Made by a program: the position numbers and the translations under genes
DNA from: an uncultured Clostridium sp.
GTDB taxonomy: Bacteria > Bacillota > Clostridia > TANB77 > CAG-465
Length of the DNA stretch: 33,059 nt
Direction of reading: 5' to 3'
NCBI GenBank assembly: GCA_948470565.1
Contig: CAOKPF010000017.1
Location: 1 to 33,059 of the forward strand
In this document: in pieces, positions 13,928 through 33,059 of the stretch
Layout of the letters: each line of letters opens with the position of its first letter
Position numbering within the stretch: the stretch's first letter is position 1
Notes under the pieces: model-generated
Seen by the model: the letters and a program-made list of their open reading frames with translations, nothing else
Databases searched by the model: none
What the model was told of the DNA's origin: nothing

Positions 13928-15724
13928 ATGCAAGATGAAAAATCTATAATACCATCATATATAGATAATACTAATTTTAGATATTTAAAAGTAGATAATA
14001 AATATATAGCAAGCATTATAATATCTGATTATCCTAGAGAAATTGACGTATTTGAATTTATAGAAGCTCTCTTAAACAATGTTTCTTATGATATGTCAAT
14101 GTATATTCAAAAACAAGATACAGCAAACATTCTAAAACAATTATCATATAGTATATCATCATCAGGTACAGAACTTAAAACTGCTAATGAAAATCAGCTT
14201 GATATAGATATATTAGATAGGTTAAAAGAAGATGCAAAAAGACTTAGAAGAGATATACAATTAAATAATGAAGAGGTATATTACTTAAACATATATATTA
14301 CGTTATATGATACAGATAAACAAAATTTATTAAATATTTTAAAAAGATTTCAAAGTAGACTTTATTCAAAATCAATTATTTCTAATATTGCTAATTTTAG
14401 GCATTTAGATTCATATATTTTAACTTTACCCTTAGTTAATTTTGAAAATAAATTATTGAAAAATTCATATAGAAATATCACAACCAGTACACTTAGTAAT
14501 TTTTTCCCATTTTATACCAAAACAATATTTGACAAATATGGCGTTATATTTGGATATACATTAAATGAAAATAGAATGTGTAGTATAGATATATTTAATG
14601 AAAAGTATCTAAATGCAAATATGTGTATTTTTGGTAGTAGTGGTTCAGGCAAATCATATTTTACTAAGGTACATATTATAAGAGAGTTTTTGTTGGGGAA
14701 ACATCAATATATTTTTGATCCTGAGGGAGAATATGTAAATATAGCAAAGAGATTAAATTCACATAGTATTTCATTTAAAGATAAAAGTACTAATAAATAT
14801 ATAAACATATTGCAAATTACACAAGTAGATATAAAAGTTTATGGGGAAAATGTAATTTTTGAGTGTATAGAAAATAGTACCAAGTTTTTAGCCCAGTTAT
14901 GCTGTATTCAAAATGAAGGATATATTCAGGAATTAAAACTAGGAATAAAAAAAGCATATGAGTATAAAGGTATTAGTACTATAAATGATTTATACTTAGA
15001 AGAAGAAGGAGAGAAGATTTTTTTAGATAAAAAACTAAAGGGTGCTAAATATTATCCAAATTTATATGATATGATGGAAAATATTACTTCAGAGAAATTA
15101 GTACATATTATAAAAGAAAATATTATAGATAAATATCCATGTTTAACCCAAAATACAAATGTGGATATATATTCAAAATTATTTGTATATGATTTATCTG
15201 ATATTAGTACATATGATGCTGTAATTTTTATAAAATTCTTTTTGAATAAAATAGAACAGAAATTAAAACTGGAAAAAAACTCGATAAGTGAAAATAATGT
15301 AGGTATTAACACATTGATATACTTTGACGAAATATGGAAATATATTAGCATGAAAGGAAAATTTAATCTATCTGAAAAGATATTTTCAATGTTTAAAACT
15401 ATAAGAAAATATAAGGCAGGCATTGTAGTAATAACACAAGATGTATCTGATTTTTTCTCATATGAGAATGGCAGTTATGGAAAAACTATACTAAATAATT
15501 CTTGTTTTAAATTGTTTTTCAAATTAGAATATTCTGATATAAAAGTATTAGATAAACTTAATATATTAAATTCATATGTTTATGAAAAAATATCATATCT
15601 TGGTAAAGGACAATTATTAATGATGTTTAAAAATAATATAGCATTGCTTAATGTAAAGGCAAATAGCTATGAAAATAATATTGTAGAGGAGGGAAAAAAT
15701 GAAATTAATAGTAGCACTAAATAA
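13928..15724 (+). CDS. VirB4-type conjugation/secretion ATPase
   Basis: 598-aa ATPase that in relatives energises assembly of or transport through a type IV secretion channel at the inner face of the membrane. The N-terminal ~200 residues match the VirB4/TraC N domain (including RLKEDAKRLRRDI and the NFRHLDSYILTLPL stretch). Walker A GSSGSGKS is at 236-243, followed by FDPEGEYVNIAKRL; Walker B LIYFDEIW has Asp467-Glu468; TQDVSDFF follows as in the family. GAGGTGATAAA precedes ATG 13928. Its 3' end overlaps the next gene by 26 bases. No relaxase, coupling protein, VirB6 or VirB8 is encoded in the window. Confidence 0.87.
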   Translation: MQDEKSIIPSYIDNTNFRYLKVDNKYIASIIISDYPREIDVFEFIEALLNNVSYDMSMYIQKQDTANILKQLSYSISSSGTELKTANENQLDIDILDRLKEDAKRLRRDIQLNNEEVYYLNIYITLYDTDKQNLLNILKRFQSRLYSKSIISNIANFRHLDSYILTLPLVNFENKLLKNSYRNITTSTLSNFFPFYTKTIFDKYGVIFGYTLNENRMCSIDIFNEKYLNANMCIFGSSGSGKSYFTKVHIIREFLLGKHQYIFDPEGEYVNIAKRLNSHSISFKDKSTNKYINILQITQVDIKVYGENVIFECIENSTKFLAQLCCIQNEGYIQELKLGIKKAYEYKGISTINDLYLEEEGEKIFLDKKLKGAKYYPNLYDMMENITSEKLVHIIKENIIDKYPCLTQNTNVDIYSKLFVYDLSDISTYDAVIFIKFFLNKIEQKLKLEKNSISENNVGINTLIYFDEIWKYISMKGKFNLSEKIFSMFKTIRKYKAGIVVITQDVSDFFSYENGSYGKTILNNSCFKLFFKLEYSDIKVLDKLNILNSYVYEKISYLGKGQLLMMFKNNIALLNVKANSYENNIVEEGKNEINSSTK

Positions 15725-16955
15725 TGAAAAGATAAAAAGTAAACTAACAGAAAAGTATGGAAGTGATGTATACGAACAAGATATAACATATATGGAGGGA
15801 GTAATTGAATTTATAAGTAGATATAATGATGAAATTACAATTATTACAAAAGATACTCTTAGTGGCAATTTAACCAAAATTTTGTATGTGAAACAAATTA
15901 GGCTCGCTAATCCAAATGCTAAAGTAATATATATAGTTGGAAATTTAACAGATGAATACAAAGAGTTTTTGTTTGCTAATGAAATTTTTAATATAATAGA
16001 GGGAAATGAAATTGAAGTTGATAATATAATAGATTGTATTGAAAATGGAAAAGAGGTAGTATACAAAAACAATGAAATAAGTTATATTCCAGAGTTTGCT
16101 TTTAATGAGCCTGCTCAAGATATGGAATATTTGAGTCAAAATCAAGTTATAACCAAACAACTAATAGCAGTTTATGGAACAAGTGGTGCAGGAAAGTCTG
16201 TATGTTCAAGTATTATTGCAAAGGAAATTGCTGACAGATTAAATATATCAGTTGCACTACTAGACATGGATTTTGAAAATTCTTCAATGGATATTATAAA
16301 TAATATAGATACAAATATCAGTTCATTAACAAGTTTTGTAGAGGATATAGATAAAATGATTGATATAAATAACAATATGGAAAGTTACATGATAAAAGAT
16401 AAAAGAAATAGCAAAATTTCATATTTTACTAATAAGACTGGTATATTTGAATGCCAAAATAAGCTTTCAGTAAAATATTATTCAAAAATATATTCTGCTA
16501 TAAAATCAGCATATGATTATACAATAGTAGATCTTCCAGCAAGCCCATTTTTGGATATTGTACTATATACATTAAATATATCAACCAAAGTATTTTTTGT
16601 TATTAATGCAAATTATACTAGTATAAGACAAGCAACTAAATATTTAGATATGCTAACAAAATTGTGGGAGATTCCAAAATCAAAAATTGGTATAGTTGTA
16701 AATAAAGTTCAAAAAGATTCGTTAGATAATATTCAAATTGAGGCGATGTTAAAAGATTATGAGGTAATTGCTAATATTGGAAATAACAAAAGTATGGAAG
16801 CATATGTAAATGGTGTAGTTTCAAATATAGATTTTAGTATAAATTGTGATAAAATTTATGATAAACTAGGTGTTAAGAATGTAAATTCTAAGAAGAAAAA
16901 ATTTAAACCTATAAATTTATTTATAAACAAGAAAGGAAATAATAATGATAATTAA
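15699..16955 (+). CDS. TadZ/CpaE-like ParA/MinD-fold ATPase
   Basis: 418-aa protein. Residues 1-130 form a receiver-like domain without an obvious phospho-acceptor pattern, and residues about 150-400 a ParA/MinD-fold domain with P-loop GTSGAGKS at 160-167, a LLDMDFENSS switch and IVDLPASPFLD. The P-loop lacks the signature lysine of the KGGxGKT type, a deviation also described in TadZ proteins. In Tad systems TadZ/CpaE places the pilus machine at a cell site. GAGGAGGG lies inside the end of virB4-like, giving a 26-base overlap. Presence directly before a TadA/CpaF homologue supports the call. Confidence 0.83.
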   Translation: MKLIVALNNEKIKSKLTEKYGSDVYEQDITYMEGVIEFISRYNDEITIITKDTLSGNLTKILYVKQIRLANPNAKVIYIVGNLTDEYKEFLFANEIFNIIEGNEIEVDNIIDCIENGKEVVYKNNEISYIPEFAFNEPAQDMEYLSQNQVITKQLIAVYGTSGAGKSVCSSIIAKEIADRLNISVALLDMDFENSSMDIINNIDTNISSLTSFVEDIDKMIDINNNMESYMIKDKRNSKISYFTNKTGIFECQNKLSVKYYSKIYSAIKSAYDYTIVDLPASPFLDIVLYTLNISTKVFFVINANYTSIRQATKYLDMLTKLWEIPKSKIGIVVNKVQKDSLDNIQIEAMLKDYEVIANIGNNKSMEAYVNGVVSNIDFSINCDKIYDKLGVKNVNSKKKKFKPINLFINKKGNNNDN

Positions 16956-18132
16956 TCCTTTTAATATTAATAATTTATATGTGTCAGATGAAACTGAAAT
17001 AAATGTTGATACAAAAGGAAATGAAAGTAATATAGATTTTAAACTATTAGAAAAGTATATAATAAATAATTATATGAATTATTTGCAAAATAATTTAAAA
17101 CAAGAGTTAATGTCAAAAATACATGAATATTTATATGATACATATTCCATTAAAGATAATGAAAAGTTAATGGAAGTATCTGATAAAATTATTAATAAAA
17201 TGTTTGGATATGATATACTTCAAAAGTATATAGAAGATATAGAAATTACAGATATTAGAGTAGTTAAGTATAATAGTATATATGTAAAGAAAAAAGGTAA
17301 TTGGATAAAGACAATAGATGCTTTTGAAAGTGATGAAATTTTTGAGGAATATGTTAGATATTGTATATTAAAAAATAATGGTAATATAAATTATGATACG
17401 CCAATTGTCGTAATAAGTGATAAAAAGTATAATCTTAGAATAGAGGCTGGAATTAGTCCAGTTAATGTAAATTCACCAAGTTTAGTTATAAGAATACATA
17501 GGCATAATTTTAATATAACATTAGAAAATCTTTTTGTTATTGATGAGATGTTAGATGCAAGTTCGTATAAAATAATATCTAATGCTATAAATAATAGATG
17601 TAATATTGTTATATCAGGAAAAGGTGGAAGTGGTAAGACCAGTTTACTTAGGGCAATAATCAATAAAATTCCAGATGAGTGGGCTATAACAATAAATGAA
17701 GAATCTACAGAATTATTTATACAAGGTAAAAATATAATTCAAAGAGAAATTATAAAAAATAGAGAAAATAATAAAAAAATTACATTACAAAAATTAATGG
17801 AACATTCTCTTGTAATGTCAAATGATGTTATAGTTGTAGGTGAGTTAAAAGGTGAGGAAACTTCATATTTTATAGATGCAATTAGCACAGGGCATATGGG
17901 ACTTGCAACAGTTCATGCTAGTAGTGCACTAAATACACTTGATAGGATATTAGTATTATTTAAAAGAGATATTAAAAATCAGCAATATAATGAAGTTTTT
18001 GTTTCAAAGATTTTAGCTACAAGTATAGATTATATAATATATATAGAAGACTATAAAGTAAAACAAATTGCAACTGTAGATTTTGATAAATGTAATGAAA
18101 GGTTAGTAATAGAAAATATTTATGAGAGGTGA
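16945..18132 (+). CDS. TadA/CpaF-family secretion ATPase
   Basis: 395-aa hexameric secretion ATPase of the VirB11/CpaF/TadA family, which powers pilus extension or secretion at the cytoplasmic membrane. The N-terminal helical part (IDFKLLEKYIINNYMNYLQN) is followed by the CpaF pattern YDILQKYIEDIEITDIRV. Walker A GKGGSGKT lies at 225-232, then EESTELFI, Walker B DVIVVGELKGEE, and the His-box TGHMGLATVHASS. AAAGGAAA precedes ATG 16945, overlapping the preceding gene by 11 bases. VirB11 is the alternative label, but adjacency to TadZ-like and TadB/C-like proteins favours TadA/CpaF. Confidence 0.9.
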   Translation: MIINPFNINNLYVSDETEINVDTKGNESNIDFKLLEKYIINNYMNYLQNNLKQELMSKIHEYLYDTYSIKDNEKLMEVSDKIINKMFGYDILQKYIEDIEITDIRVVKYNSIYVKKKGNWIKTIDAFESDEIFEEYVRYCILKNNGNINYDTPIVVISDKKYNLRIEAGISPVNVNSPSLVIRIHRHNFNITLENLFVIDEMLDASSYKIISNAINNRCNIVISGKGGSGKTSLLRAIINKIPDEWAITINEESTELFIQGKNIIQREIIKNRENNKKITLQKLMEHSLVMSNDVIVVGELKGEETSYFIDAISTGHMGLATVHASSALNTLDRILVLFKRDIKNQQYNEVFVSKILATSIDYIIYIEDYKVKQIATVDFDKCNERLVIENIYER

Positions 18133-18137
18133 TATTA

Positions 18138-19010
18138 ATGATTAGTGTTATATCTAGTTTAATCCTATTTGTAATAATATATTTTTCAACAAATGTAATT
18201 TTTAGTTTTTTTGAAACAAGAAAAGTAAATAATTTTTTAAATAATATGTCTTATACCAAGAAATTTAAAGCATATATATATGAATTTGAAAAATCATATA
18301 ATAAAAAGGTAAAATTTATATCATTAATAAATATATTAATATTTTCATTTATACTATCAGTAATTGTATTTGTCAGTGTATATAGTTTTGTAAAAATAGT
18401 ATCTACGGCATTAATTATAGCTATATTTTCTTTTTTTCTACCATATTTTTTCGTAAAGTATTTAGTAAAAATAAAAAAACAACAAATCTTAAATATATTT
18501 CCTACATATGCAGTTAATTTAAAAAATTACACTAAAATTGATAATGATATAGTAATAGCATTTAGAAAAACAAAAACTAGTAAACCTTTAAGTTTGTATA
18601 TAGATAAATTTAATTTATCAGTTGAAAAGGGATTAAATGTGTATGAGGCGTTTAATGAATTAAAAAACGATATAAATATAAAGAGTATAAATGACTTTTT
18701 AACTGCTGCACAATATTCATATCTAAATGGTGGCAATTTTAACCAATTACTTGATAAGTATTCAAAAATTCTGGTAAAAGCTAATATCCAAAGAGAAAAA
18801 GAAAAACAGGAAAGTTTTTCATCAAAATTTATTTTATTTTTACTTATAATTATAAACATATATATTTTGTTTATTTTTATATTTTCAAATGAAGAATATA
18901 GGAGCATAATGTTTCAAACTAATACAGGAAAATTTATTATAAATTTAAATATTATTTCTTATATTTTTATATTTTATTTTATTCATAAATTAAATGAAAT
19001 GGAGGAGTGA
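18138..19010 (+). CDS. TadB/TadC-like inner-membrane platform protein (type II secretion F domain)
   Basis: 290-aa membrane protein. Hydrophobic segments at about 2-22, 58-80 and 85-105 precede a cytoplasmic helical domain (LSLYIDKFNLSVEKGLNVYEAF through YSYLNGGNFNQLLDKYSKIL) typical of T2SF platform proteins, and two more segments close the protein. Standard Tad loci have two such proteins, TadB and TadC; only one is here. GAGAGGTGA precedes ATG 18138, which is preferred over an in-frame GTG at 18129 that lies inside the binding site. It probably forms the membrane base on which the CpaF-like ATPase acts. Confidence 0.8.
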   Translation: MISVISSLILFVIIYFSTNVIFSFFETRKVNNFLNNMSYTKKFKAYIYEFEKSYNKKVKFISLINILIFSFILSVIVFVSVYSFVKIVSTALIIAIFSFFLPYFFVKYLVKIKKQQILNIFPTYAVNLKNYTKIDNDIVIAFRKTKTSKPLSLYIDKFNLSVEKGLNVYEAFNELKNDINIKSINDFLTAAQYSYLNGGNFNQLLDKYSKILVKANIQREKEKQESFSSKFILFLLIIINIYILFIFIFSNEEYRSIMFQTNTGKFIINLNIISYIFIFYFIHKLNEMEE

Positions 19011-29640: not shown

Positions 29641-32600
29641 GTGTTTAAGGAAAATAATGAGTTATCATTCGGTTTTGATTTAGGAATTGCCTCAGTTGGT
29701 TGGGCAGTTACTAATATTAAAACTAATGAAATAATCGATAAAGGAGTATATTTATTTTCAGAAGTAAATAAATCACAAGAAAGAAGATATATAAGAAGTT
29801 TAAGGAGATTAAGAAAGCGAAAACTTCATAGAGTTGAAAGGGTATACCAAATTTTTGAAAGAAAAGGTATAAATATAAAATGTGTACCAGATGCAAATTT
29901 ACTAGATAAGCGAATAAAATCACTTTATGAAAAGGTTGAATTACAAGATTTAGTAAATATTATAATATATTACATTAAACATAGAGGGCATATATTATAT
30001 GAAAATGAGAGATTATTTACTACATATGTAACTGATTATAAAGAAGGCGAATATCCATGTCATATCCAAAAGAAGATATTACAAAATGCTGGTAAGTATA
30101 GAGGATTAAAATATGTTTTTATGCATGAGGATTATGTTAGAGAAATAACCCAAATATTGCATATGCAAAGTAAGTGGTATAATGACTTTTTATCTGGTGA
30201 GGTTATAGATGAAATTATTAATATTCTAAAACGTAAACGAAAATTTTGGGAAGGTCCTGGTGGTCCAAAATTAAATCAACTTAGTAAGTATGGTAGGTAT
30301 AAATGTAAAGAAGATATAGAAAAATATAATATAGATAAAAACTATAATAAGTTTTTGTATGAACAATTTATCGGAAAATGTAAAGTGTATCATGGTGAAA
30401 AGAAAACGCCATATTCTAATTTTTACGTAGAGTACTTCAATATATTTAATGATTTAATGGGATTGAGATTTGATAAATCACAGATAAATCATATAAATTC
30501 TAAATATTTTGTTAGAGTAAATCAAAATTTATATAAATTAACATCAAATAGTGCTCAAATTCTAATTGAAGAAGTATTAGATTTAGAAAAGCTAAATATT
30601 TCAAAGGTTATAAAAGAATTATTTTTTGTAGAGGAATTTGTTAAAAATTCAAAAAATGAAATAAAAATATCATCTTTTGAAAATTATAGAAAGTTAAGAC
30701 GAACTATAAATAATAATGAAATATTTAACATTATTAAATCTGATATAGATTTATATAATGATATTATGTATGTAGTTCAAGTATCACCAGATAATTTGTC
30801 AAGATATGAAATTTTAAAAGAAAAATTTTCTGAGTATATTCCAGATGATTATTTAAAAGTAATATCTAATTTAAACTTAGAAAATAAATATCATAGTTTT
30901 TCTGAAAAAGCTTTAAAGCAATATATTAAATATATGCAAATTTCAAATGAAAATTCTACGTATGTTGCTAATAATTTTGCAAATGAAATTGCATCTGATG
31001 TTGAAGAATATAAAATACAAAAATATATAAGTAACAATAAGACGGGAGAGTTAAAATACATAGCAAAATATTTCGTTGATGAATTAGAGGCATCACCACA
31101 AATGAAAAAAACATTGAGGAAAGCTATTCTTGTAATAAATAGATTATTTTCAAAATTTGGTTATCCTAAATATATATGTATTGAAACTGCAAAGGTATTA
31201 TTAAATTCTAAGCAACAAAAAGAACAGGAGAAAATGACATTAGACAATCAAAATATAAGAAAATATGCTAAGGATTTTTTAATTCAAAATAATATTGAGA
31301 TAAGTAAATATAATATAGATAGATTTATTTTATACTGTGAATGCAATCAAAAATGTATTTTTTGTGATAAAGAATTGGATTTTGAAAGTACATATATTAC
31401 CAATATATTACCTGTTAATAAAGTATATGATGATACATATTCTAATAAATGTATAGCTTGTAATATATGTAGAGAAAAAATTTCTAATGTTATACCAATG
31501 AAATTTGTTGATAATGTGGATAACTATATTAAAAGAATAAATAAAAATAAGAAATTGGGCGATATAAGGAAGGGATACTTGCTATTTAACTTAAATATAG
31601 ATAAATATAAAAAGAAATTTAAAAGCAGTAATTTAAATGATACAGCTTATGCTAGTAATGAATTTGCTAATTTAATTAATACTTTTAAAAAAGCATATTA
31701 TAGAATTAATGGGATTAATCTTAAATTAAGTGTAATAAAAGTACCTGGGCAATTTACACATAGAATTAGAGAAAAGTATGATATTGTTAAGGATAGAGAG
31801 CAAAAATTTCACCATGCTGTTGATGCAACTATTGTATCATCAATTCCAAATTGTAATATTGGTAAAATAATGAATTTTATTCAAAATAAAAGTGATGAGT
31901 ATTGGTTAAGTAAGCTTATGGACGATTACAGAGATAATATTAATGATAATTTATATTTAGAAAGTTCTATTATAGAAAATTTAAAAAGTGCTAATTATAC
32001 AAATACTAGAGTATGTTTAGAAGTAAAAAAGGATATAAATGCTAAACTTTTTAATTCAACAATTAATACTTGTTTTAAAAAAGATGATAATTTTTTTAGA
32101 ATTAGTAAAATAAAAAATATTTATGAATTAGAACCCAAAAAAGTAAAAGATATTTTTAAAAAGAAGCTTTTGTGTAAAGAAAAAGATGTAATATTATACA
32201 ATAAGCTTTTTGATATATCAAATAACTATTATGATGAAAATATTAATGCTTTTAAAAAGTATTGTATTGAAAATTATAATATTGATCAAATTGAATTTAA
32301 TCCTAATATTCATGGGATAAGAAGAAATAATAGTGAAAAGTCACCAATTGTTAAGAGTATAAAATATTATGAACATGCTAATATGCCATTCCTTTTAACT
32401 AAGAAAAATATTAATAAAAAGGAAAGTAAACTTTTAGCATATAATATGTTATCTACTTATTGTATTAGAATATATATAAATAAAGTTACAAGTGAGTATC
32501 GAATTATGCCTATATATAGGATTTTTTTTAATTTAGATAATGAAAGTTTAAATGTAGAAAATCCATATTATAAGCAAATATTTAAAAATTATGTTGGAAT

Positions 32601-32817
32601 AGATGATACAAATATATTGTTTTATATGGATTTATTTAAAAATGATATGGTAAGATATGAAGATGAGTTTGGAAAACATGAAGGGGTTATTGGTTGTTTT
32701 AATAAAGTGGATTGCTCAATAATGATGAAAAATGGTGAAAGAAAAATTACAAAAAATACTAAAAACATAGAAAGAATAAATACTGATATTTTAGGTATTT
32801 ACAATTTTAATATTTAA
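29641..32817 (+). CDS. cas9: Compact Cas9 (type II) with RuvC intact and HNH catalytic pair lost
   Basis: 1058-aa RNA-guided DNA endonuclease homologue, the size of type II-C Cas9. RuvC-I FGFDLGIASVGWAV has Asp13; the Arg-rich bridge helix (RRYIRSLRRLRKRKLHRVER) starts near residue 48; RuvC-II YICIETAK has Glu515; RuvC-III HHAVDAT has His725 and Asp728. The HNH core aligns as YITNILPVNKVYDDTYSNK at 585-603: where active enzymes have Asp-His before I-[IL]-P, this one has Thr587-Asn588. The later Asn602 and Asn608/616 region is kept, flanked by Cys pairs 572/575 and 604/607/610, a probable zinc knuckle. The LNDTAYASNEF linker and a PAM-interacting C-terminus follow. Predicted to nick only the non-target strand or only to bind. 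GTG start with GGAGG. No cas1, cas2 or csn2 beside it. Confidence 0.94.
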   Translation: MFKENNELSFGFDLGIASVGWAVTNIKTNEIIDKGVYLFSEVNKSQERRYIRSLRRLRKRKLHRVERVYQIFERKGINIKCVPDANLLDKRIKSLYEKVELQDLVNIIIYYIKHRGHILYENERLFTTYVTDYKEGEYPCHIQKKILQNAGKYRGLKYVFMHEDYVREITQILHMQSKWYNDFLSGEVIDEIINILKRKRKFWEGPGGPKLNQLSKYGRYKCKEDIEKYNIDKNYNKFLYEQFIGKCKVYHGEKKTPYSNFYVEYFNIFNDLMGLRFDKSQINHINSKYFVRVNQNLYKLTSNSAQILIEEVLDLEKLNISKVIKELFFVEEFVKNSKNEIKISSFENYRKLRRTINNNEIFNIIKSDIDLYNDIMYVVQVSPDNLSRYEILKEKFSEYIPDDYLKVISNLNLENKYHSFSEKALKQYIKYMQISNENSTYVANNFANEIASDVEEYKIQKYISNNKTGELKYIAKYFVDELEASPQMKKTLRKAILVINRLFSKFGYPKYICIETAKVLLNSKQQKEQEKMTLDNQNIRKYAKDFLIQNNIEISKYNIDRFILYCECNQKCIFCDKELDFESTYITNILPVNKVYDDTYSNKCIACNICREKISNVIPMKFVDNVDNYIKRINKNKKLGDIRKGYLLFNLNIDKYKKKFKSSNLNDTAYASNEFANLINTFKKAYYRINGINLKLSVIKVPGQFTHRIREKYDIVKDREQKFHHAVDATIVSSIPNCNIGKIMNFIQNKSDEYWLSKLMDDYRDNINDNLYLESSIIENLKSANYTNTRVCLEVKKDINAKLFNSTINTCFKKDDNFFRISKIKNIYELEPKKVKDIFKKKLLCKEKDVILYNKLFDISNNYYDENINAFKKYCIENYNIDQIEFNPNIHGIRRNNSEKSPIVKSIKYYEHANMPFLLTKKNINKKESKLLAYNMLSTYCIRIYINKVTSEYRIMPIYRIFFNLDNESLNVENPYYKQIFKNYVGIDDTNILFYMDLFKNDMVRYEDEFGKHEGVIGCFNKVDCSIMMKNGERKITKNTKNIERINTDILGIYNFNI

Positions 32818-32826
32818 TGCTATAAT
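32798..32826 (+). promoter_or_regulatory. Promoter of the small RNA, inside the end of cas9
   Basis: TTTACA (32798-32803) lies within the last cas9 codons; 17 bases on is TATAAT (32821-32826) with a TGC extension. The expected start is near 32833. Confidence 0.85.
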
Positions 32827-32832
32827 GGATTT

Positions 32833-32920
32833 GCATGTTAAATGCTAGGAATATTACGGTGTTCTTTATTATAACAGTAGAATACGGAATTGAGGGGGCT
32901 TTTGCCCCTTTCTTTATTAT
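32833..32920 (+). ncRNA. Predicted small RNA next to cas9, tracrRNA candidate
   Basis: A stretch of about 85 bases between a near-consensus promoter and a strong terminator, with no reading frame. It begins with a GCAT/ATGC hairpin; the middle can fold through TATT/AATA, AC/GT and TGTT/AACA around a 9-base loop; it ends in the terminator stem. Size, position and a terminal GC-rich hairpin fit a tracrRNA, but no repeat is available in the window to test the anti-repeat. It could alternatively be a cas9-associated guide-like RNA of another kind. Confidence 0.68.
32893..32920 (+). terminator. Terminator of the small RNA
   Basis: AGGGGGC, a TTTT loop and GCCCCTT pair over 7 bp (one G-T), followed by TCTTTATTAT. 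It also ends cas9 read-through. The remaining 139 bases of the window hold no gene or repeat that I can see. Confidence 0.88.
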
Positions 32921-33059
32921 ATAGTATATAGGTAGTTGTAAAATTGTATAAGTATAAAAAATACATATTTTTGTAAGAACATAAATGTAATACTTTTGAA
33001 ATTTAATGTAAATGTCAAGTAAAAAGTTAATAAAAAGTGGAAAATAAAAAAGTCATAAA

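What the first reader, a model, noticed from the sequence alone, without database searches (positions are those of the whole stretch)
32798..32920. Self-contained small RNA gene immediately after cas9
A promoter (TTTACA, 17 bases, TGC-TATAAT) starts within the last cas9 codons and drives about 85 bases ending in a GC-rich intrinsic terminator. A dedicated promoter and terminator beside cas9 strongly suggest a tracrRNA or a related Cas9-binding RNA. In usual type II-C loci tracrRNA and array are close together, but no array is visible here.
Basis: partly seen in the sequence, partly recalled or inferred. Interest (0 to 1): 0.75.

Follow-up and report, generated by a model that had tools for sequence, protein, structure and literature searches.

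The report
tracrRNA gene beside HNH-damaged cas9
The small RNA gene right after cas9 is almost certainly the ordinary Cas9 helper RNA (tracrRNA) in its normal family position; the CRISPR array looked absent because the assembled sequence stops just downstream, and the less ordinary part is that the neighbouring Cas9 has lost the catalytic residues of one of its two DNA-cutting domains.

Summary
The promoter (TTTACA-17-TGC-TATAAT) and GC-rich terminator form the only such unit in the 33 kb window, and none appeared in 40 shuffles. Nearest Cas9 relatives (44% identity; genomes G185, G507, G516) and a distant one (G824) have the same arrangement: -35 box in the last cas9 codons, -10 just after the stop, small RNA, terminator. 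In G185 and G516 that RNA carries a 25-26 nt anti-repeat to the array repeat, so there it is a tracrRNA by complementarity. The window RNA aligns to it (27 of 32 columns; 0-1 of 2000 shuffles as good). In G507 and G516 the order is cas9-tracrRNA-cas1-cas2-unknown gene (G516 then array), so the 'usual II-C layout' premise was wrong. The array 'absence' is partly an assembly effect: the contig ends 139 bases past the unit, inside a multi-copy element that also ends seven other contigs. No matching repeat or matching cas1-cas2 was found in the assembled genome (96.6% complete), so the array is lost or unassembled. This Cas9 has Thr-Asn for Asp/Glu-His in HNH with RuvC motifs intact: a decaying system or a natural RuvC-only nickase. 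Expression and Cas9 binding are inferred, not shown.

The parts
29641..32817 (+). cas9, 1058 aa; RuvC I/II/III motifs intact, HNH catalytic pair replaced
   Evidence: TIGR01865 E 4e-100; alignments
31399..31404 (+). codons T587-N588 at the place of the HNH Asp/Glu-His pair
32798..32803 (+). -35 box TTTACA inside the last cas9 codons
   Evidence: same place in four relatives
32818..32826 (+). extended -10 (TGC TATAAT) directly after the cas9 stop
   Evidence: TGn conserved in G185, G507, G516
32833..32920 (+). tracrRNA gene, inferred transcript
   Evidence: homology with tracrRNAs of G185/G507/G516, unique unit in the window
32833..32875 (+). inferred anti-repeat region, ending TTATTATAAC; the predicted repeat would begin near GTTATA and contain CCGTAATATTCCTAGCATTTAACATGC
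   Evidence: alignment to proven anti-repeats; no matching array found, so inferred only
32876..32891 (+). conserved tracrRNA body AGTAGAATACGGAATT
32892..32920 (+). intrinsic terminator and 3' hairpin
33007..33059 (.). end of a multi-copy, insertion-sequence-like element at which this contig and seven others stop

Best explanation
It is the tracrRNA gene of a type II CRISPR-Cas9 locus whose family layout is cas9-tracrRNA-cas1-cas2-third gene-array. RNA polymerase starts just downstream of cas9 (shown: conserved promoter; inferred: transcription). The roughly 85-nt RNA would pair through its 5' anti-repeat with pre-crRNA, be trimmed by RNase III and load into the adjacent Cas9 (inferred from the family). 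In this genome the adaptation genes and array are either deleted or lie beyond a repeated element that broke the assembly, and Cas9 has lost its HNH active site, so the locus is most likely decaying, or at most nicks or binds DNA.
For: Unique promoter-terminator unit. Same unit at the same place in G185, G507, G516 and, with a 12/12 promoter, in distant G824. Anti-repeat in G185/G516 matches their array repeat over 25-26 nt; the same anti-repeat is present in G507, whose array is beyond its contig end. Window RNA core 27/32 identical to that tracrRNA, 0-1 of 2000 shuffles as good. Cas9 groups with these with 100/100 support. Cas1 and Cas2 identified in G516. Contig ends in a repeat that ends seven other contigs.
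Against: No CRISPR repeat complementary to the RNA was found in the assembled genome, so the defining pairing could not be shown here. No Rfam match. No expression data.
Confidence: 0.9

Rival explanations
1. A regulatory Cas9-associated RNA such as a scaRNA or a natural single guide, rather than a tracrRNA.
For: Own promoter and terminator, no array seen; scaRNAs are described as small RNAs outside the array with their own start and terminator, partly complementary to a tracrRNA (PMC6199352).
Against: A scaRNA needs a separate tracrRNA and repeat-like sequence; this RNA is instead the positional and sequence counterpart of anti-repeat-bearing tracrRNAs. No match of 13 nt or more to the rest of the window, including the cas9 promoter region.
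Confidence: 0.04
2. A relic: the tracrRNA gene of a dead locus, still readable but no longer used. This concerns present use and is compatible with the tracrRNA identity.
For: HNH active site lost, long Cas9 branch, no array or matching cas1/cas2, repeated element 90 bases downstream. A congener, G008, shows a further stage: HNH His replaced, cas9 reading frame apparently shifted near its end, no cas1 and no array within 16 kb.
Against: cas9 reading frame intact over 1058 codons; promoter and terminator close to consensus.
Confidence: 0.55
3. The RNA serves the type I-B array on another contig.
For: That is the only array seen in this genome, but only part of the genome was scanned for arrays.
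Against: No complementarity beyond shuffled repeats; type I-B systems use Cas6, not tracrRNA (established knowledge).
Confidence: 0.01

Closest known systems
tracrRNA of the related Cas9 loci in genomes G185 (contig CANQQQ010000044.1), G507 and G516
   Same: Position after cas9, 17-bp spaced promoter overlapping the cas9 end, core sequence, single 3' hairpin terminator
   Different: Window RNA lacks the extra 5' hairpin, its anti-repeat sequence differs, and no array is assembled
Type II-A loci with small Cas9 such as Streptococcus thermophilus CRISPR1 (St1Cas9 is the best solved relative; its tracrRNA place is recalled from memory, not tested)
   Same: Small Cas9, tracrRNA between cas9 and cas1
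   Different: Third gene after cas2 matches no Csn2 family; window lacks cas1-cas2
Type II-C-like loci of the same bacterial order
   Same: tracrRNA with own terminator, Cas9 near 1100 aa
   Different: tracrRNA lies upstream of cas9, different repeat, Cas9 about 26% identical

Membership tests
tracrRNA | Encoded in the cas9 locus as a separate transcription unit | tested here: met
   (sequence signals; transcription itself not tested)
tracrRNA | Homologous to RNAs with a demonstrated anti-repeat | tested here: met
tracrRNA | Anti-repeat complementary to the repeat of the host's array | tested here: inconclusive
   no matching repeat in the assembled genome, but the contig stops where the rest of the locus is expected
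tracrRNA | Processed with crRNA and bound by Cas9 | not testable with these tools
   needs RNA-seq and pull-down
Type II-A CRISPR-Cas | csn2 next to cas1-cas2 | tested here: inconclusive
   relatives have a 273-279 aa gene in that place with no Csn2 family match; none in this genome (no positive control)
Catalytically complete Cas9 | HNH His and RuvC residues present | tested here: not met
   RuvC met, HNH His replaced by Asn588, Asp/Glu by Thr587

The most novel reading that the evidence does not exclude
A natural RuvC-only Cas9 (HNH inactive) retained with its own tracrRNA after loss of adaptation genes, working as a nickase or DNA-binding regulator rather than an immune nuclease; the congener G008 shows an independent loss of the HNH His.
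Probability: 0.12. Interest if true: 0.7.

Novelty: new member of a known kind. Interest (0 to 1): 0.35.

Why it matters
It fixes the identity of the RNA and shows that the tracrRNA promoter sits inside the end of cas9 in this branch, a handy landmark for annotating fragmented loci. The pairing of an intact tracrRNA gene with an HNH-inactive Cas9 makes a testable case for whether such Cas9s are relics or natural nickases.

Tried and rejected
A first reading took the segments on both sides of the central hairpin as one split anti-repeat; alignment and most co-folds with the real G185/G516 repeat favour a continuous anti-repeat instead, although one truncated co-fold of G516 gave another pairing. 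Three-mismatch hits to the predicted repeat were single sites with no array around those inspected. Cas9 structure prediction from four rows was poor (mean pLDDT 34), only the HNH region was better, so no fold search was made. Searches for relatives in viral contigs gave none, and in phages and plasmids only 21-25% matches. Literature searches for natural HNH-inactive Cas9 found nothing pertinent in the held library.

Full report
The observation. The sequence at 32798-32920 is as described: TTTACA, 17 bases, TGC, TATAAT, then about 85 bases ending in a GC-rich hairpin with a T-rich tail. Promoter-like matches are common in this AT-rich DNA (57 against 50 expected), but a promoter of 11 or more matches followed by a GC-rich terminator occurs once in the whole window and never in 40 shuffles.

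The surroundings. The window is an entire contig of 33059 bases from a 2.1 Mb, 126-contig genome. Its last 53 bases, from 33007, are a sequence that also ends seven other contigs (C9, C10, C16, C45, C58, C71, C79) and occurs inside others, so assembly stopped at a multi-copy element. That it is an insertion-sequence end is an inference from its look and copy number. The only cas1 found in the genome belongs to a type I-B locus with an eight-repeat array, whose repeat does not pair with the RNA.

Relatives. Within the family of the window's genome no other full-length close Cas9 was found. In the wider order, G185 is 44% identical over the full length, and G507 and G516 are 82-83% identical to G185. 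All three have, directly after cas9, a small RNA gene with TTTACA-17-TGn extended -10 and a terminator. In G185 and G516 the RNA contains GTTTTACATTATTAA(A/G)GATTTACAGT, complementary over 25-26 nt to the array repeat GTTTTAGAGTACTGTAAATCTTTAATAATGTAAAAC (in G516 one position is a G-U pair). G507 has the same sequence, but its array lies beyond its contig end. G507 and G516 continue with cas1, cas2 and a third gene of 273-279 aa, and G516 then with array repeats. In G185 only the start of cas1 remains, joined to the array leader, so that locus lost its adaptation genes; no cas1 was found elsewhere in G185. The distant relative G824 has a perfect TTGACA-17-TATAAT promoter in the same place and an RNA with a classic AAGGCTTTATGCCG hairpin before cas1 (the cas1 and cas2 there are read from sequence, not family-tested). 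A tree puts the window with this branch at full support. The II-C-like loci of the same order keep tracrRNA upstream of cas9 and use another repeat.

The window RNA. It aligns with the relatives' RNA over the central segment with 27 of 32 identical columns; 0, 0 and 1 of 2000 shuffles score as well against G185, G516 and G507. The 5' part, which should be the anti-repeat, differs, as expected if the repeat differs. From the alignment the repeat should begin near GTTATA and contain CCGTAATATTCCTAGCATTTAACATGC. No such repeat was found in the assembled genome: BLAST of the region gave no long match, a two-copy GTTATAATA pattern gave none, and an 18-mer with up to three mismatches gave only isolated sites. 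A query of the relatives' Cas1, Cas2 and third protein also found nothing, without a positive control.

Cas9. RuvC I, II and III residues are intact, but the HNH Asp/Glu-His pair is Thr587-Asn588; the HNH segment is 31% identical to G185 against about 60% for the RuvC segments, and Pfam HNH models that hit the relatives do not hit it. Its tree branch is long. The congener G008 independently has Tyr for the HNH His; its cas9 frame appears shifted near the end and no cas1 or nearby array was found. This fits relaxed selection, though the window's cas9 is full length.

Mechanism. Shown: conserved promoter, core and terminator signals, and anti-repeat pairing in relatives. Inferred: transcription, pairing with crRNA, RNase III trimming, Cas9 loading. 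With HNH inactive, established Cas9 biochemistry (PMC3936727: inactivating one domain leaves nicking by the other, and catalytic motifs are not needed for dual-RNA maturation) predicts at most RuvC nicking of the non-target strand.

Verdict. A tracrRNA in its normal family position, ordinary in kind; the missing array is lost or unassembled, and the HNH-inactive Cas9 is the more interesting lead.

Noticed in passing
31399-31404: HNH catalytic pair of Cas9 replaced by Thr-Asn while RuvC motifs and the HNH-flanking cysteines are kept.
   Followed up: yes
L049:4489-7527 (G008): A congener's Cas9, about 26% identical, has Tyr for the HNH His and an apparent frameshift near its end; a tracrRNA-like sequence with an AAGGCAAAATGCCG hairpin lies upstream.
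   Followed up: partly
L047:1300-3660 (G185): cas1-cas2-third gene deleted leaving the cas1 start joined to the leader; degenerate repeat copies scattered downstream.
   Followed up: partly
L083:10188-11027 and L082:65-886: Third gene after cas2 (273-279 aa) with no Csn2, Pfam, NCBIfam or PADLOC match.
   Followed up: partly
33007-33059: Multi-copy element whose end terminates at least eight contigs of this genome; matched no plasmid record.
   Followed up: partly
L009:12025-19861: Type I-B cas genes with an eight-repeat array in the same genome.
   Followed up: partly
13928-19010: Run of ATPase and membrane genes that look like a secretion or pilus cluster; judged by eye only.
   Followed up: no
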